Source: Methanospirillaceae archaeon
Lineage (GTDB): Archaea; Halobacteriota; Methanomicrobia; Methanomicrobiales; Methanospirillaceae
Direction of reading: 5' to 3'
Length of the DNA: 39,285 bases
Assembly: GCA_016926505.1 (NCBI GenBank)
Contig: JAFGOM010000082.1
Span: 1 to 39,285, forward strand
The position numbers were made by a program, and so were the translations under genes. Below, in pieces: positions 21,867 to 38,739 of this stretch. Numbering within the stretch: the stretch's first letter is position 1; the number at the start of each line of letters is the position of its first letter. Under the pieces are notes generated by a model. That model made no database searches and was not told the DNA's origin. It saw nothing but the letters and a program-made list of their open reading frames with translations.

Positions 21867-22958
21867 ATGAAGATATTATTTATTGCAAATGCAGCATGCA
21901 TCCATCCTGTTCGGTTTGCACAATACTTTGCAGATAGGAAATATGATGTCCATTTTATCACTTATGTTCCACCAGAAGAATTGCTCTCCAATGTGAAAAT
22001 ACATATTCTCCCCTCTTTTTTCTCAAATATATTCTTGGATTTTTTTCCAAGACAGTTTATTATCCATAGTATTATTAAAATCGTTGATCCGGATGTCATT
22101 CATGCTGTCTACATCAGCAAGTTTGGATGGCATATCATACCTATCCGAAAAAAACCGATTTTTTTAACTGCACTGGGATCAGATATTCTTCTAACACCCT
22201 ATAAAAATCCAATCTATTATATCTTTACAAAACTAGCGTTGCAAAAAGCAGACATTATTTATGCAGTCTCAAAACATATTCAACAAAAAATTATTTCTGA
22301 ATATCAAATCCCAGAGTATGTTGTTAAATATTTACCTATTGGTATTGATACATCTATTTTCTATAACGAAAAATTAGAATTACCCCTATCAACTCCCATA
22401 ATCAGATTATTTTCGAATCGGGGATTTCGAGCTGAATACGATCCGATAACCATTATTGATGCTGTAGGAATAGTCTTTAAAGAATATCCACATATTACAT
22501 TAACTTTAAAAGGACATGCTTCCGAAAGAAAACAATGCGAGGACTATGTTTTTCAGAATGGTTACGATTCATTCATTCAGTTTCTTGAACGTACAGACTA
22601 TGCGTGTGTTATCAATGATTACAAAAGTGCCGATATTTTTATTTCTGCAGCTATATCTGATGGTACACCGGTCTCAATGATTGAGGCGATGGCATGTGGT
22701 CTTGTTTGTGTCATGAGTGATGTCGGAGGTGTTTCTGAATGGATAATAGATGAGTATAATGGGTTACTCTTTCCTCCGAAAAGACCGGATATCCTTGCAC
22801 AAAAGATAAAATTTTTAATTGATAATCCAGAAAAAAGGCAGATTATGAGAGAGAATGCACAAAAAACAATTCTATGTCGCGGTAACTGGACAAACCTGAT
22901 GAAACAGATTGAAAATGATTATCACAATATACAAAGAGTTACTGAAATTGCGCAATAA
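21867..22958 (+). CDS. Family 4 glycosyltransferase, AT-rich, probably laterally acquired
   Basis: 363 residues. It has the GT-B/GT4 architecture: N-terminal acceptor domain (MKILFIANAACIHPVRFAQYF), a middle TALGSDILLTPYKNP, then LPIGIDTSIF, RLFSNRGF and LKGHAS. The nucleotide-sugar site SDGTPVSMIEAMACGL is a variant of EX7E in which the first acidic residue is Asp. Substrate unknown. Its composition is visibly much richer in A and T than every neighbour. It is on the opposite strand inside the otherwise co-directional translation/targeting block, with an AT-rich 235-nt upstream region. Both points suggest recent insertion. Confidence 0.87.
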   Translation: MKILFIANAACIHPVRFAQYFADRKYDVHFITYVPPEELLSNVKIHILPSFFSNIFLDFFPRQFIIHSIIKIVDPDVIHAVYISKFGWHIIPIRKKPIFLTALGSDILLTPYKNPIYYIFTKLALQKADIIYAVSKHIQQKIISEYQIPEYVVKYLPIGIDTSIFYNEKLELPLSTPIIRLFSNRGFRAEYDPITIIDAVGIVFKEYPHITLTLKGHASERKQCEDYVFQNGYDSFIQFLERTDYACVINDYKSADIFISAAISDGTPVSMIEAMACGLVCVMSDVGGVSEWIIDEYNGLLFPPKRPDILAQKIKFLIDNPEKRQIMRENAQKTILCRGNWTNLMKQIENDYHNIQRVTEIAQ

Positions 22959-31833: not shown

Positions 31834-32661
31834 TTATCCATCAAAGATCGCTCTGATAAACTCGCCTTCTCTCTTTAAAACAGATATCTTCTCATCTGAA
31901 CCGGGGGGAATATTTGCCGTCAAATCATTTATCTCAGAAGTAATAAGCCCGGAATATCCTGCATCACGAATTGCCTCAAGGATTAATGTACTACCGGAAT
32001 CTCCGGCAACCGGCTGATGAAGACCGGCAGGCCCGGGACGGGAAACATGGATATTTACTGCTTTATCGATACATCTGTCGATAAAATCAAGTGCCGGTTG
32101 CAGGTCTGCATCCCGGTATGCATGGCAGATATCAATCGTGCAAAAAAGCCAGGGAAATGACTCAAGACATTGTATCATCTCCTCTGGATTGGACAGGAGT
32201 GCATTAACACGGGGTTCCATATTCTCAATTGCCACCACACAGGAGCAGCTGCTCTGTACTGATTGTACTGATTCAAGAAGGTGAAAAAGACGTTTCCAGT
32301 CAAGATCTCCAACCGGCCGGTGAGCGGTTCGTCTTCCCGGATGGATTGTGCATACCGATGCATGAATGGCGTCTGCAAAGGTAACTGCATTACATGTCCA
32401 CTGCACAGATATCTCTGCTACATCAGGGTTAATAGAACAGGGATTGAGATCAAGAACCGGTGCATGAACAGAAAGGGGCCACAGAGCAGGATACTTTCTG
32501 CTTATCTCTAAAAAATAGGATTCAGGTAAACCACGCAACCAGAAATCAGGGGTTTCAAGCCAGAATTCAAGAGAATCCAGTCCGGTCAGATTAATGCAGG
32601 CAAATATCTCATCAAGACATTTTTCATGAAGAAACATACTTGACGCTGCAATCCGAACCAT
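31834..32661 (-). CDS. TIM-barrel sugar-phosphate isomerase/endonuclease IV-like protein
   Basis: 275 residues, AP-endonuclease-2/xylose-isomerase-like barrel. Likely metal ligands lie in SVHAPVLDLNP, TIHPGR, AIENM, TIDICHAY and HVSRPG, with a C-terminal Glu in ITSEIND, matching the strand-by-strand pattern of the superfamily. It could be an isomerase/epimerase or a nuclease. The divergent neighbour xseA makes a DNA-repair role thinkable but not demonstrated. Only 38 nt separate the two divergent starts. Confidence 0.8.
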   Translation of the reverse strand: MVRIAASSMFLHEKCLDEIFACINLTGLDSLEFWLETPDFWLRGLPESYFLEISRKYPALWPLSVHAPVLDLNPCSINPDVAEISVQWTCNAVTFADAIHASVCTIHPGRRTAHRPVGDLDWKRLFHLLESVQSVQSSCSCVVAIENMEPRVNALLSNPEEMIQCLESFPWLFCTIDICHAYRDADLQPALDFIDRCIDKAVNIHVSRPGPAGLHQPVAGDSGSTLILEAIRDAGYSGLITSEINDLTANIPPGSDEKISVLKREGEFIRAIFDG

Positions 32662-32699
32662 ATCGCTATCCTTATTGTTATCTATGGAGTACCATTAAG

Positions 32700-34121
32700 A
32701 TGATGCCTGAATCGTACAATATGACCCTTGATGCATGGACAGAAAAAAAAGATCCATCAGGTATGCAGAGCAGGGTCTGTACGGTCAGTGAAATTGCAGA
32801 CCGTATCTCAGGGTTACTCAGTGATCCCGGATTATCCGGAATCTGGGTACGGGGGGAGATAGCCAATTACAATCATCACCGGTCAGGACATCGCTACTTC
32901 TCACTATCAGATACCGAATCCGGAAAAAATGCCATCCTTGAGTGTAAGATGTGGAAAGGATATGCAAAACATATCAGGTTTACCCCGGCAAACGGACAAT
33001 GTATCGAGGCATATGGATCCATCGAGAACTATATTCCTCACGGCGCATACTCACTGATTGTTACCCAGATGCGGCCTGCGGGTATCGGAGAGACGTTTCT
33101 TTTAGTGGAGCGATGGAAGAAAGAGTTGCAGGAAGAAGGATTGTTTGCACAAGAACGGAAGAAAAACCTGCCCCCCTATCCTGAAACAATAGGAGTGGTG
33201 ACCTCAAGTACCGGTGCGGTCCTGCATGATATCAGGAATGTATTGTCATGCCGGTACCCGATACATATCCTCCTTGCTCCCACTGCTGTTCAGGGTGACG
33301 GAGTACAAACCGAGATTGTTAAAGCGCTTCATTCCCTTGAGGGCAGGGTCGATATTATCATTATTGCCCGGGGAGGAGGCAGTTTCCTTGATCTCTTCCC
33401 GTTCAATCATCCGGATCTGGTCAGGGCCATCGCAAACTGCAATACTCCGGTTGTGAGTGCCATCGGCCATGAAGTAGATGTCACTCTCTCTGACCTGGCA
33501 GCAGACAGACGCGCATCAACCCCTTCCCATGCAGCTGAGATCTGTGTTCCTGACAGGAACCAGGAGTTACACAACCTGCAGGTACAGGCAGGAATTCTTA
33601 GTCGATTACTTCTTAGAAGAAAGGAGAATGCATGCCGGGATCTCAATACCATTCGTGAGAGGTTGTCTTTTTTAGGGATGAAGCAGAAAATAAATGCAAA
33701 ACACCAGGAACTGGTCGATCTCTCAGATAAAATGGACCAAAACCAGAAGATGCATATTCATAACCAGCATATGACAGTCAGGGAACAGAAAGCACGAATA
33801 CATGCAAAAAGTCCGTTGGGAATCCTGATTCATGAAATCCCGGAACGCAGAAGATACCTTCAGGCACAAAAAGAACGCATTACTATGGATCTTACTATAC
33901 GCTTCCGAGAAGAAAGAAGTGAGCTGGTATCAATACAAAAACTTCTCTGCACGGTTCATCCCAGGATGCTTCTCTCCCGGGGATACTGTATCGTGCGGAA
34001 AGGAGATGAATTCGTGCGAAGTGTATCTTCACTCAGAAAAGAAGATATCATACAGGTTATTTTTTCCGATGGTTCAGCTGATATCAGAGTGCAGGAGATA
34101 CGAAAAAATGAAAAAGTATGA
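32700..34121 (+). CDS. xseA: Exodeoxyribonuclease VII large subunit
   Basis: 473 residues from the ATG at 32700; ATGs at 32703 and 32721 are alternatives, and an in-frame ATG at 32640 overlaps the divergent gene. The N-terminal OB fold (TVSEIADRISGLL...GIWVRGEIANY) is followed by the catalytic domain: IGVVTSSTGAVLHDIRNV, IIIARGGGSFLDLFPFNH and GHEVDVTLSDLAADRRASTPSHAAEI. A long charged coiled coil (about 310-440) and a closing beta segment (LSRGYCIVRKGDEFVRS) complete it. It degrades single-stranded DNA to oligonucleotides with XseB. This bacterial-type enzyme is uncommon in archaea. Confidence 0.95.
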   Translation: MMPESYNMTLDAWTEKKDPSGMQSRVCTVSEIADRISGLLSDPGLSGIWVRGEIANYNHHRSGHRYFSLSDTESGKNAILECKMWKGYAKHIRFTPANGQCIEAYGSIENYIPHGAYSLIVTQMRPAGIGETFLLVERWKKELQEEGLFAQERKKNLPPYPETIGVVTSSTGAVLHDIRNVLSCRYPIHILLAPTAVQGDGVQTEIVKALHSLEGRVDIIIIARGGGSFLDLFPFNHPDLVRAIANCNTPVVSAIGHEVDVTLSDLAADRRASTPSHAAEICVPDRNQELHNLQVQAGILSRLLLRRKENACRDLNTIRERLSFLGMKQKINAKHQELVDLSDKMDQNQKMHIHNQHMTVREQKARIHAKSPLGILIHEIPERRRYLQAQKERITMDLTIRFREERSELVSIQKLLCTVHPRMLLSRGYCIVRKGDEFVRSVSSLRKEDIIQVIFSDGSADIRVQEIRKNEKV

Positions 34122-34320
34122 AGAACTCATCGATGAGCTAAAGGAGATTGTGTATCAGATTGAAGACGAGAAAACGAGCCTTGAAGAAAGTATCGATCTG
34201 TATGAACGAGGAACAACTCTCATTAAATTATGTGAAAAGCGACTGACAGAGGCTGAGTTGAGAATCTCACAGCTTTCTGCCGATGATACAGAACAGAACG
34301 GTACACTGGTATCTGAATAA
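34108..34320 (+). CDS. xseB: Exodeoxyribonuclease VII small subunit
   Basis: 70 residues from the ATG at 34108 (MKKYEELIDELKEIV); longer in-frame starts lie inside xseA and are not used. The family core is present: ELIDELKEIVYQIEDEKTSLEESIDLYERGTTLIKLCEKRL. The small subunit forms helical hairpins that wrap the XseA coiled coil. It overlaps the end of xseA by 14 nt, and GGAG lies upstream of the ATG within xseA. Confidence 0.94.
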   Translation: MKKYEELIDELKEIVYQIEDEKTSLEESIDLYERGTTLIKLCEKRLTEAELRISQLSADDTEQNGTLVSE

Positions 34321-34530
34321 ATATTCCTGCGCTATCGGACAGCGTCTCATGAAAAGAATCATCTTTATCAGGTGATAACGAATATTCTTTCAGGTACCAC
34401 TTCATCTTGATAAAGCCCGGGAATTTGTTGTTTCAATAGTGCAGGTCTAATACATCCAAAACATGAATATAGAACCAAAAAAACCGGCAACCTTTTGGGA
34501 GTCTTAATAACCAATAATAAGAGGGGAAAT

Positions 34531-34962
34531 ATGACAGAATACACAAAACGGTCATGGCATTGCCTGATTATTACATTCATTGTCCTGATCTGTTCAACCG
34601 GCTGTTTTTCCTACAGTGAACCATCCATTGCACTTGAGGCAGCTGCTACCCTTGTTTCTGCAGACGAATCTACCATGACAGTTACCTATGATATCAGCAG
34701 TCTCATCAAAAATACCGGGAGCAATAATGCGTATGACGTGCGTATCCTTGTTCTCATTAGTACTTCACCGGATCAACCGGAATACCGGATGAATTCAGCA
34801 ACAATTGATGTGGGAACGTTGTTAAAGGGAGAAACAACAACAAAGGCGCTAACCCTCCCACTTGAGGTAACCAGACTTCACTTTGATAAACTGGCATCAG
34901 GAGAGGAAAAACCCCACGTTGAGGTAAAGGTAAGCCGAATCAGTTCTAATATCATGGGATAA
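34531..34962 (+). CDS. Small putative exported lipoprotein
   Basis: 143 residues from the ATG at 34531, which has AGAGGGG 4 nt upstream; a longer frame to 34495 lacks such a site. Residues 1-25 form a signal peptide with hydrophobic core LIITFIVLI and lipobox-like STGC, making Cys25 the candidate lipidation site. The rest is mainly beta-strand (MTVTYDISSLIKNTGSNNAYDVRILVLI, TTTKALTLPLEV), resembling a small CARDB/DUF-type immunoglobulin-like domain. No function is recognised. Confidence 0.7.
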   Translation: MTEYTKRSWHCLIITFIVLICSTGCFSYSEPSIALEAAATLVSADESTMTVTYDISSLIKNTGSNNAYDVRILVLISTSPDQPEYRMNSATIDVGTLLKGETTTKALTLPLEVTRLHFDKLASGEEKPHVEVKVSRISSNIMG

Positions 34963-35311: not shown

Positions 35312-37465
35312 ATGATAAAAAAAATAATTATTAAGGGGTTTGCATGGAGCACTTCAGAGATCCATGCCATTCTTCAGTATCAAAAAAAGCAGGGAATGCG
35401 ATACCTCTTACGGGTACTCTTCCTCCCGGCCAGTATCCCGTTAATTCTGGCAATAATTCATTATGCCGTATTGCGTGGAATAAAATCCCAGAATACTATC
35501 ATAAGTTATGTATACCTCAACTACTCCTCGCCCAACCTGATCGGAGCATTCTTCTCAAACTATGCACATAATATATCGAACGTAACACATCTTTTATCAA
35601 ACATCCTGTATTTTGAGATTATCATCATACCGATACTTATTCTGAACTATTATCTCTTTCCCATCCATAGTATTCGGTTTTCAAGGAAATTCTTCTCGTA
35701 TAGTTGCATTTTAACCTTTATTCTCGGCCCGTTTGTAATATCAGGTTTGAGTTTATACTTTGGACGTATGCTTAATTATGAACTGGGAGTCGGGTTTTCA
35801 GGGATTAACTGGGCATTTGCAGGCCTTTTATTTTTTCTTATCATCAGTGTCATGTTCAGGTATCTGAAAAAGAACACGATATGTAATGATTCACTAATCA
35901 CTATCCATGCAGGGATTGTGGTGATGTCATTTGTGATGTTCTTCCCGGTCTGTGTTATCCTATCTTCCATTAAATATGGCGGGACAAATGTCTTTGCCCA
36001 TATGAGCGGATATCTGTTCGGCTGGCTTACTTTTCCCCTTCTTGCATTCCTCCTTGAAGTACATGAGAAAAAGAGTATCTCTATCACACAACCATCAATA
36101 TTCTATCGTGCAAAGACTCGCATACAAGCAATAATGACCCTTATTTTCCCGGTTTGGAAAAGAAGAGAACAATTACCAGAGCCGGTTCCTTCCCAGACAT
36201 TATCAGAAGAAAAAACAGATCGGGTTGATCTTTTAAAAGAAAGAAAAGATGGGATTTATGGGAACCAATCTCCTGGTAATGATTTAGAAATAGGGTCGGA
36301 AAAAAGGATTTTTTTATCCGGATGGGAAAAAAGAAGCACTTCAAATTCTTTCAAATCATCACCTTCTGATAATCCAGGAACAACAATTGATAAGAGATCC
36401 TCTTTTATGAGAAAACCTGCTTTTTTTCGATCTTTTTCTCGTAAAAAAAGACCTGTAATCAGGGAGTTCTCATTTAACATCGATGATGAGATGAAAAAAA
36501 AGCACGGATTTTACCGGTTTGGAAAAGATAAATATTTCTTTCGAAGAAGAAAATACAAGCACTCATCCTCGCATATATCACAATACCACACAGAAAGTGA
36601 AAAAGAACACAGATTCTTTAAGAGAAACAGAAAAACGCAACCTGCTTCTTTCCCTGCAGATAATACCAATAATTTGCACATAGTAAAAAAGCATGGTTTC
36701 CGGGTCAGTTTGTTTCCCTGCCGGTTACAATCTCTATTCTCTCTTATTCATCGATTTCTTATTCGAATAAAGAATATATGCAGTATTCCATTATGGCTGA
36801 TACAAAACAGATGGAAGAAAAATGAAAGAGAGAAAAACAATACAAAATGGAATGTATCAGCCACTCCTGATAGATCAGGAGTGAAATGGAAAAGATTTTT
36901 GTTTTTCCCATTCACATTTAAGACGTATCAAAAAATTCGAAATGCATCAATTACTCTTCGATCGCGGTTTTTGGACCGGATTTATAGAATCCGGCATAAA
37001 GAAGGCGTATTCCATCCTTTAAAAATCCAGCAAAAAAGACAAATGCCGGATACCGAGAGAGATACTATCTCTATTCATTCAGGTACAGATGTTTTACCTG
37101 ATAAAACTGGTAATACGCACGATCTATCAAATCCTTCCAAACCTTTACCTGATACGATATCACTATTTTCTCAATTAAAAAGAAAGATAGTTGATCAGAT
37201 AGTATCCTGTAGTACCATGGCTTCTTCGTGTTTCAGAAGAGGAAAAGATAAAATAATTCTGAACAGAAAAAAGACATACCACTATTCAGGCACATCGGCT
37301 GACAAAAGGAGAATATTCCATGGATCATTCCCGTCAGTACAATCCCGGGAGAGTACTTTGTATAAAAAAGGGATTTTGAGAAGAATCAGGATCAGATGTA
37401 AAAATGCTGTACTTTTCCCGATAGCCGTCATCAGAAACAGGATCAAAAGATCAGGATTGCGATAA
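35312..37465 (+). CDS. Rhomboid-family intramembrane serine protease with long basic tail
   Basis: 717 residues. Residues 30-250 contain six hydrophobic helices with rhomboid landmarks: H93-x3-N97 (HLLSN) in helix 2, the serine motif G161-F-S163-G164 at the start of helix 4, and the catalytic histidine H230 in HMSGYLFG (HxxGxxxG) in helix 6. The Ser-His dyad appears intact, so proteolysis of membrane proteins is expected. Residues 251-717, predicted cytoplasmic, are low-complexity and roughly a quarter Lys+Arg. They contain degenerate repeats: GKDK segments at 401-420 and 641-660, and N-x4-P-x3-I-x-NR at 488-500 and 698-710. The gene is more AT-rich than its neighbours. Tail function unknown. 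Confidence 0.75.
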   Translation: MIKKIIIKGFAWSTSEIHAILQYQKKQGMRYLLRVLFLPASIPLILAIIHYAVLRGIKSQNTIISYVYLNYSSPNLIGAFFSNYAHNISNVTHLLSNILYFEIIIIPILILNYYLFPIHSIRFSRKFFSYSCILTFILGPFVISGLSLYFGRMLNYELGVGFSGINWAFAGLLFFLIISVMFRYLKKNTICNDSLITIHAGIVVMSFVMFFPVCVILSSIKYGGTNVFAHMSGYLFGWLTFPLLAFLLEVHEKKSISITQPSIFYRAKTRIQAIMTLIFPVWKRREQLPEPVPSQTLSEEKTDRVDLLKERKDGIYGNQSPGNDLEIGSEKRIFLSGWEKRSTSNSFKSSPSDNPGTTIDKRSSFMRKPAFFRSFSRKKRPVIREFSFNIDDEMKKKHGFYRFGKDKYFFRRRKYKHSSSHISQYHTESEKEHRFFKRNRKTQPASFPADNTNNLHIVKKHGFRVSLFPCRLQSLFSLIHRFLIRIKNICSIPLWLIQNRWKKNEREKNNTKWNVSATPDRSGVKWKRFLFFPFTFKTYQKIRNASITLRSRFLDRIYRIRHKEGVFHPLKIQQKRQMPDTERDTISIHSGTDVLPDKTGNTHDLSNPSKPLPDTISLFSQLKRKIVDQIVSCSTMASSCFRRGKDKIILNRKKTYHYSGTSADKRRIFHGSFPSVQSRESTLYKKGILRRIRIRCKNAVLFPIAVIRNRIKRSGLR

Positions 37466-37595: not shown

Positions 37596-37790
37596 ATGCA
37601 GATCATACTCCCCGATAAATCCAGTCGTATTATTTCAAAAGATAATGTACCTATCAGAGAGATCCTTCTTGACCTGGGATTTGCTCCATCAGGTGTTATC
37701 GTAATAAAGAACGGATCTGTAGTTCCCGATGATCTCATCGCCGGAGATGATGATGAGATCAGGATAATCAAAATCGCTCATGGAGGATAG
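37596..37790 (+). CDS. ThiS/MoaD-like sulfur carrier protein (TtuB/SAMP type)
   Basis: 64 residues, ubiquitin-like beta-grasp fold of the ThiS/MoaD size. It starts MQIILPDKSSR, contains REILLDLGFAPSGVIVIKNGSVVPDDLI (the ThiS-like second half) and ends in Gly-Gly (IAHGG), the tail that is adenylated and thiocarboxylated by an E1-like enzyme. It lies 19 nt before a TtuA/NcsA-type gene, so it probably donates sulfur for tRNA 2-thiouridine. It may also act as a protein modifier. Confidence 0.88.
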   Translation: MQIILPDKSSRIISKDNVPIREILLDLGFAPSGVIVIKNGSVVPDDLIAGDDDEIRIIKIAHGG

Positions 37791-37809
37791 AGATAAAAAC
37801 GGATGATAC

Positions 37810-38739
37810 ATGGAGCGTGACAATCATTGTTCATTCTGTTCCAGGGCGGCAGTCATTCTGGGAAGTGATGAAAAAACAAGACTATGCCAGGATCATCTTT
37901 TAGAGGATCTACTCAGACGTGTCAATGATACGATACAAACGAATAATCTGATTCAGCCAGGAGATCATATCGCGGTTGCCTTATCAGGGGGAAAAGACAG
38001 CACTGCCCTGATCCTGTTGCTCTCTTCAATCCTGAAATCCCGTACAGATATTACCGTAACCGCGATTACAATTGATGAAGGTATTACCGGTTACCGGGAA
38101 GAAACCCTCCAGAATGCTAAAAATATGGTAAAAATCCTCGGAATTAATCATTATATTCTCTCTTTTGCCGAACTTTTTGGAAAAGATCTGGATCACCTTC
38201 TTTTAGGAAAGACCCATAGAGCGTGTACAATATGCGGAGTGTTACGCAGAAAAGCACTCACTGTGGCAGCCAGGACTATTGGTGCAACAAAGATAGCAAC
38301 CGGACATAACCGGGATGATGAGGCCCAGTCTGTTCTTATGAACGTAATGCGGGGAGATATTACACGACTGGTACAGGATAGCAGAGAGGGAAGCCCGGGT
38401 TTATTTTTACCCCGGATAAAACCACTATCTGCAATCTATGAAAAGGAACTTTTGATCTACCTGTATGTCACCGGTCATTACATTGAATTGCCGGAATGCC
38501 CCTATGCATCAACTGCACTCAGGAGAGAGATCCGGGAGATCATTTCTCTTTTCAGATACAAGCATCCAGAGGCCTGTGATGGCCTTATCGATTTCAGGGA
38601 CAAAGTCAGGAATTGTAACCTTCTCACCCCCGATCCGAATACAATACAGCACTGCAGAATATGCAAAGAGCCCTGTAATGGAGATATATGTCAGGCTTGT
38701 CTGATACTCCGTCCAACAATCCCGAAATACCAGTTGTGA
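37810..38739 (+). CDS. tRNA 2-thiolation enzyme, TtuA/NcsA type
   Basis: 309 residues. An N-terminal zinc finger (C7, C10, C26, H29) is followed by the PP-loop S59-GGKDS64, which adenylates the target uridine. The three cysteines expected to hold a catalytic 4Fe-4S cluster are C139 and C142 (ACTICG) and C230 (PECPY). TGHNRDDEAQ is the conserved acidic motif, and a C-terminal zinc ribbon CRICKEPCNGDICQAC ends the protein. The family thiolates tRNA uridine 54 or 34 with sulfur from a TtuB-like carrier, here the gene just upstream. GGATGAT precedes the ATG. Confidence 0.93.
   Translation: MERDNHCSFCSRAAVILGSDEKTRLCQDHLLEDLLRRVNDTIQTNNLIQPGDHIAVALSGGKDSTALILLLSSILKSRTDITVTAITIDEGITGYREETLQNAKNMVKILGINHYILSFAELFGKDLDHLLLGKTHRACTICGVLRRKALTVAARTIGATKIATGHNRDDEAQSVLMNVMRGDITRLVQDSREGSPGLFLPRIKPLSAIYEKELLIYLYVTGHYIELPECPYASTALRREIREIISLFRYKHPEACDGLIDFRDKVRNCNLLTPDPNTIQHCRICKEPCNGDICQACLILRPTIPKYQL

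What the first reader, a model, noticed from the sequence alone, without database searches (positions are those of the whole stretch)
35312..37465. Rhomboid protease core fused to a ~465-residue basic, internally repetitive tail
Seen: six membrane helices with HxxxN (93-97), GFSG (Ser163) and HxxGxxxG (His230), followed by residues 251-717 that are about a quarter Lys/Arg by eye. The tail carries degenerate repeats. Residues 401-420 and 641-660 share R, GKDK, R, K, H and S at the same offsets (9 of 20 identical, offset 240). Residues 485-503 and 695-713 share R, KN, P, I, NR and K (offset 210), and P280 lies in a similar FPVW setting. Known: typical rhomboids have short extensions. Inference: the tail could bind nucleic acid, anionic lipid or a substrate, making this a new tethered-rhomboid architecture.
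Basis: partly seen in the sequence, partly recalled or inferred. Interest (0 to 1): 0.75.

Follow-up and report, generated by a model that had tools for sequence, protein, structure and literature searches.

The report
Archaeal rhomboid protease with basic tail
This methanogen gene encodes a genuine but divergent rhomboid-type protease embedded in the membrane, joined to a 430-460-residue, strongly positively charged tail of unknown function that no relative examined carries.

Summary
The 717-codon frame 35312-37465 is intact and residues 30-253 are a rhomboid. Across 25 Methanomicrobiales sequences, eight of nine invariant columns are the rhomboid signature (H93, N97, G161, S163, G164, H230, G233, G237). 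Ten homologues score to Pfam Rhomboid, and every high-probability structure match is GlpG.

The tail is the odd part. Homologues have open frames of at most 351 aa, and most end in a seventh hydrophobic helix missing here. Residues 254-717 are 22% Lys/Arg, with no homologue in 231 genomes of the order, or in phages or plasmids. A chance frame this long has P about 2e-12; no frameshift explains it.

Best reading: a single-copy rhomboid whose C-terminus was replaced by a duplicated, probably disordered, cytosolic basic tail, perhaps an electrostatic tether. The architecture is well supported. Tethering is inference: one genome only, poor codon usage, no expression data. New variant of a known kind; moderate interest.

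The parts
35312..37465 (+). Intact 717-aa ORF: divergent rhomboid protease plus long basic C-terminal tail
   Evidence: longest stop-free run in the window
35399..36070 (+). Rhomboid membrane core, residues 30-253, six TM helices
   Evidence: Homologue profile E=7.5e-79 in own genome; AlphaFold2 pLDDT mostly 80-97; top PDB fold matches are all GlpG
35588..35602 (+). HxxxN motif, His93 and Asn97 (TM2, oxyanion-hole residues by analogy with GlpG)
   Evidence: Invariant in 25 sequences
35792..35803 (+). GFSG motif with predicted catalytic Ser163 (TM4)
   Evidence: G161, S163, G164 invariant
35999..36022 (+). HxxGxxxG motif with predicted catalytic His230 (TM6)
   Evidence: H230, G233, G237 invariant
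36071..36181 (+). Residues 254-290: position of the seventh hydrophobic helix of most homologues; here basic and not hydrophobic enough to span a membrane
   Evidence: Max 19-residue KD hydropathy 1.94-2.75 in 18 homologues; at most 1.1 anywhere in this tail
36182..37462 (+). Orphan basic tail, residues 291-717, pI 10.8, 22% Lys/Arg, mostly low-confidence or disordered in the model
36368..36823 (+). Repeat unit A, residues 353-504
   Evidence: Self-alignment score 81, exceeds all shuffles
37100..37453 (+). Repeat unit B, residues 597-714, homologous to unit A
36716..36838 (+). Predicted basic helix 469-509 (moderate confidence), end of unit A
36920..37000 (+). Predicted basic helix 537-563; weak similarity to 672-710
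37154..37267 (+). Predicted helix 615-652 (low confidence)
37349..37453 (+). Predicted basic helix 680-714, end of unit B

Best explanation
This is a real, single-copy, divergent rhomboid intramembrane serine protease of a Methanomicrobiales methanogen. In this lineage the short C-terminus of relatives (a seventh TM helix in most) has been replaced by a 430-460-residue, highly basic, mostly unstructured tail that grew partly by internal duplication. Shown by computation: the fold, the conserved Ser163/His230 dyad with His93/Asn97, the uninterrupted fusion frame, the duplication, and the absence of the tail from relatives. Inferred: the core has six TM helices, so both ends lie in the cytosol. 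Mechanism I consider most likely: the core cleaves membrane-anchored substrates, as other rhomboids do, while the positively charged tail with its basic helices acts as a cytosolic electrostatic tether that holds the protease against anionic lipid head groups or a cytosolic polyanion, and so restricts where or on which substrates it acts. The tether step is the leading guess (about 0.35), not a shown property.
For: Rhomboid: eight of nine invariant columns are the catalytic and structural signature; 10 of 25 family members hit PF01694, best 9.7e-7; the family profile's only PDB match is GlpG, weak at E=0.51 but aligned at GxSG and the TM6 His; Foldseek ranks 1-33 (full model) and 1-24 (core model) are all GlpG, probability 0.96-1.00, TMt 0.52-0.70. 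Tail is coding sequence: 463 codons open where 5.6% stops per codon are expected (P about 2e-12; longest simulated run 170); the other forward frames hold 21 and 34 stops; the duplication exceeds all of more than 1,000 shuffles. Replacement of the C-terminus: 18 of 24 homologues end in a hydrophobic helix, absent here. Cytosolic tail: basic residues sit on the N-terminus, L2, L4 and the tail. Single copy: one family-profile match and no PF01694 match in the genome.
Against: The window protein itself does not hit PF01694 or NCBIfam, and the Foldseek E-values are modest (best 2.8e-3). Tail codon usage is the poorest of the genes tested in the window, with GC by codon position 0.36/0.42/0.31 where most neighbours have GC1 above 0.5. 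Predicted tail helices are not more amphipathic than shuffled sequence. The tail occurs in one genome, so selection on it cannot be measured. Low pLDDT of an orphan sequence cannot tell disorder from an unknown fold. No binding or protease activity was tested.
Confidence: 0.55

Rival explanations
1. Read-through or neutral extension: the original stop was lost, translation ran into adjacent AT-rich DNA, and the tail is a young, largely functionless, basic, disordered addition.
For: The tail is an orphan; GC 0.36 is like local intergenic DNA, with poor codon usage and an abnormal GC-by-position pattern; GC3 falls from about 0.45 in the core to 0.18-0.38 in the tail; there is no conserved operon context.
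Against: Chance of 463 open codons is about 2e-12. The internal duplication is old enough to have diverged to 37 identical of 118 aligned residues while the frame stayed open. The strongest DNA-level self-matches are short, marginal and out of frame, so it is not a fresh tandem duplication.
Confidence: 0.22
2. Fusion with a formerly separate protein: the tail descends from an independent basic nucleic-acid- or ribosome-binding protein that joined the rhomboid by gene fusion, recruiting the protease to a cytosolic polyanion.
For: pI 10.8, 22% Lys/Arg, basic helices; GC3 break near residue 270-300.
Against: No Pfam or NCBIfam match and no homologue of the tail, separate or fused, in 231 genomes of the order or in the phage or plasmid collections.
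Confidence: 0.12
3. Substrate- or partner-recognition arm: the tail binds a cytosolic protein partner, such as a AAA protease or the cytosolic part of substrates, as extensions do in YqgP and RHBDL4.
For: Precedent: the YqgP cytosolic domain senses metal and YqgP acts as an FtsH adaptor (PMC7231995); RHBDL4 has a C-terminal ubiquitin-binding motif (PMC12615303).
Against: No recognisable binding domain; strong basicity throughout is unusual for such arms. A ubiquitin-like SAMP/ThiS gene lies next door, but it pairs with ncsA in relatives without the rhomboid.
Confidence: 0.11

Closest known systems
GlpG (E. coli, H. influenzae) rhomboid protease, MEROPS S54, PF01694
   Same: Six-TM core; HxxxN in TM2, GxSG in TM4, HxxGxxxG in TM6; all high-probability fold matches
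   Different: About 10-17% identity over the fold alignment; GlpG's extension is a small N-terminal cytosolic domain and it has no long basic C-terminal tail
Uncharacterised divergent rhomboid family of Methanomicrobiales (Methanocalculus, Methanoculleus, Methanoregula homologues)
   Same: Direct homologues of the core, 26-38% identity in local matches, same invariant residues
   Different: Open frames of at most 351 aa; most end in a seventh hydrophobic helix; none has the tail
Haloferax volcanii RhoII (PMC4343526)
   Same: Archaeal rhomboid with six TM segments plus a soluble extension
   Different: Extension is an N-terminal AN1 zinc finger, not a C-terminal basic repeat tail
Bacillus subtilis YqgP (PMC7231995)
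   Same: Rhomboid with large extramembrane domains that adjust substrate handling
   Different: Folded metal-sensing N-terminal domain and an extracellular C-terminal TPR array; here the tail should be cytosolic and has no recognised fold
RHBDL4 (PMC12615303)
   Same: C-terminal extension used to choose substrates
   Different: Carries a ubiquitin-binding motif; not known as a long, highly basic, internally duplicated tail

Membership tests
Rhomboid protease (S54, PF01694) | Ser in GxSG of TM4 and His in TM6 (catalytic dyad) | tested here: met
   S163 and H230 invariant in 25 sequences
Rhomboid protease (S54, PF01694) | HxxxN in TM2 | tested here: met
   H93 and N97 invariant
Rhomboid protease (S54, PF01694) | Six-TM rhomboid fold | tested here: met
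   Core pLDDT 86, pTM 0.83; Foldseek top hits all GlpG; E-values modest because of divergence
Rhomboid protease (S54, PF01694) | Match to the PF01694 profile | tested here: inconclusive
   Window protein: no match; 10 of 25 family members match, best 9.7e-7
Rhomboid protease (S54, PF01694) | Intramembrane proteolytic activity | not testable with these tools
   Needs a cleavage assay
Rhombosortase (TIGR03902) | Match to the rhombosortase model and a GlyGly-CTERM substrate in the genome | tested here: inconclusive
   Window protein: no match; 3 of 25 family members only weakly, best E=0.018; substrates not searched
iRhom-type pseudoprotease | Loss of catalytic residues | tested here: not met
   Dyad and oxyanion residues intact and invariant
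AN1-finger archaeal rhomboid (RhoII type) | N-terminal AN1 zinc finger | tested here: not met
   No such domain in Pfam; the N-terminal 30 residues contain no Cys

The most novel reading that the evidence does not exclude
A prokaryotic rhomboid protease has exchanged its seventh helix for a lineage-specific, internally duplicated, polycationic cytosolic tail that tethers it to a polyanion or the inner leaflet and thereby controls which substrates it cleaves: a charge-tethered rhomboid architecture that I did not find described.
Probability: 0.35. Interest if true: 0.6.

Novelty: new variant of a known kind. Interest (0 to 1): 0.36.

Why it matters
Regulation of prokaryotic rhomboids is poorly understood, and most described extensions are folded domains or short motifs. 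A polycationic, duplicated tail on the only rhomboid detected in a genome would be a simple way to test whether electrostatic tethering sets substrate choice. It is also a clear case of an orphan extension standing where relatives have a conserved C-terminal helix, and it draws attention to a divergent rhomboid family that canonical models barely detect, in an order where strong Pfam-scoring rhomboids are rare.

Tried and rejected
Frameshift or sequencing artefact: the other two forward frames after residue 243 carry 21 and 34 stops, and neither encodes a hydrophobic helix.

Codon-position evidence for selection on the repeats (identity 0.45/0.50/0.36): rejected, because codon-shuffled controls with long alignments give the same pattern (0.43/0.49/0.34), an artefact of aligning by protein.

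Amphipathic membrane-binding helices: not supported; maximum hydrophobic moment 0.58 against a shuffle mean of 0.56.

Third copy of the repeat at 264-290: not significant.

Out-of-frame DNA repeat (36124-36163 with 36489-36528): 1 of 100 shuffles as high, marginal. A gapped DNA self-alignment with loose gap costs ran into the global regime and was discarded.

The weak own-genome hit on contig 20 falls in a short frame beside an ABC-transporter-like reading and looks like chance. Pfam DUF6199 and DUF2427 hits of the window protein are below cut-off.

Conserved operon: none; neighbours differ between families, and the downstream SAMP-ncsA pair is conserved without the rhomboid.

The tree leaves the window protein on a long unresolved branch, so the order of helix loss and tail gain cannot be dated. 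Scans of genome contigs and viral contigs with the full protein found no relative.

Full report
What is there. The window is contig 91 of a 2.94 Mb genome in 121 contigs. Its homologues in named records are Methanocalculus, Methanoculleus and Methanoregula. ORF 35312-37465 (+) is 717 aa with no internal stop. It lies between exonuclease VII genes (32640-34320), a small CARDB-like, lipoprotein-like ORF (34495-34962) and a SAMP/ThiS plus NcsA-like pair (37596-38739).

The core is a rhomboid. Neither Pfam nor NCBIfam recognises the window protein, and PF01694 finds nothing in the whole genome although it finds rhomboids in all 14 control genomes. Searching the order with residues 30-254 gave matches in 29 genomes, and a profile of 25 sequences gave 45 of 232. 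Across the 25, nine columns are invariant: P74, H93, N97, G161, S163, G164, H230, G233 and G237. Eight of these are the HxxxN, GxSG and HxxGxxxG signature. Ten members reach PF01694, best 9.7e-7. The profile's only PDB match at E up to 1 is GlpG, at 0.51, aligned at GxSG and at the TM6 histidine. AlphaFold2 gives a confident helical core (pLDDT 86, pTM 0.83). In both Foldseek searches every high-probability match is GlpG. E-values never passed 0.001, so the claim rests on the agreement of independent lines rather than on one score.

The tail is unusual. Open frames of the homologues run to 351 aa at most, those of the listed PF01694 rhomboids in 394 genomes of the phylum to 354, and those in the order to 358. 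This one is 726 codons, the longest stop-free run in the window. Residues 254-717 hold 102 Lys/Arg and 39 Asp/Glu, pI 10.9. No homologue of the tail was found in the order (the weak hits at E=0.003-0.7 are short and many span stops), in phages or plasmids, or in Pfam and NCBIfam. Most homologues end in a hydrophobic seventh helix with mean hydropathy above 1.9, whereas no 19-residue stretch of this tail exceeds 1.1. A homologue from the same family (L004) and a few others also lack that helix, so its loss alone is not unique.

Is the tail real coding sequence? For: with the local base composition a stop is expected about every 18 codons, and the chance of 463 open codons is about 2e-12. The tail also contains a diverged internal duplication, residues 353-504 with 597-714, score 81, beyond every one of more than 1,000 shuffles of several kinds. 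Against: its codon usage is the poorest of the genes tested, GC is highest in codon position 2, and GC3 drops sharply after about residue 270. I tested whether codon-position identity between the repeats shows selection; it does not, because codon-shuffled controls give the same numbers. With one genome only, selection cannot be measured.

How it may work. A six-TM rhomboid has both ends in the cytosol, and the basic residues of the N-terminus, loops 2 and 4 and the tail agree with that. AlphaFold2 leaves most of the tail at pLDDT around 30 with helices at 261-286, 469-509, 537-563, 615-652 and 680-714; for an orphan sequence this fits disorder but does not prove it. The most economical mechanism is an electrostatic tether: the tail holds the protease to anionic lipid or a polyanion and limits its reach. 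The helices are not more amphipathic than shuffled sequence, so lipid insertion has no special support. A neutral read-through extension remains a serious rival.

Comparison with known rhomboids. Extensions on rhomboids are known: an N-terminal AN1 finger in haloarchaeal RhoII (PMC4343526), a metal-sensing cytosolic domain and an extracellular TPR array in YqgP (PMC7231995), and a C-terminal ubiquitin-binding motif in RHBDL4 (PMC12615303). What differs here is the kind of extension: long, basic, internally duplicated, without a known domain, and standing where most relatives have a seventh helix. I rate it a new variant of a known kind.

Noticed in passing
window 37596-37790 (+): 64-aa ubiquitin-like protein ending in Gly-Gly (ThiS 1.1e-4, SAMP2 4.4e-4), directly upstream of an NcsA-like tRNA thiolation gene at 37810-38739; the pair is conserved in three relatives (L096, L097, L098).
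   Followed up: partly
Order-wide: Strong Pfam-scoring rhomboids are rare in this order (25 of 231 genomes match, mostly weakly), while a divergent rhomboid family that Pfam barely detects is present in 45 of 232; in the phylum sample 295 of 394 genomes match.
   Followed up: partly
window 32640-34320 (+): Exonuclease VII large and small subunit genes in an archaeon.
   Followed up: no
window 21867-22958 (+): Glycosyltransferase gene with a strongly deviating GC3 (0.26 against 0.37-0.61 in the other genes tested), possibly recently acquired.
   Followed up: no
window 36143-36163, 36312-36332, 36508-36528: A 21-base sequence recurs three times inside the tail in different reading frames (71-95% identical); marginal against shuffles and unexplained.
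   Followed up: partly
window 34495-34962 (+): Small lipoprotein-like ORF (LIITFIVLICSTGC, CARDB-like) just upstream of the rhomboid; a possible substrate only by position.
   Followed up: no
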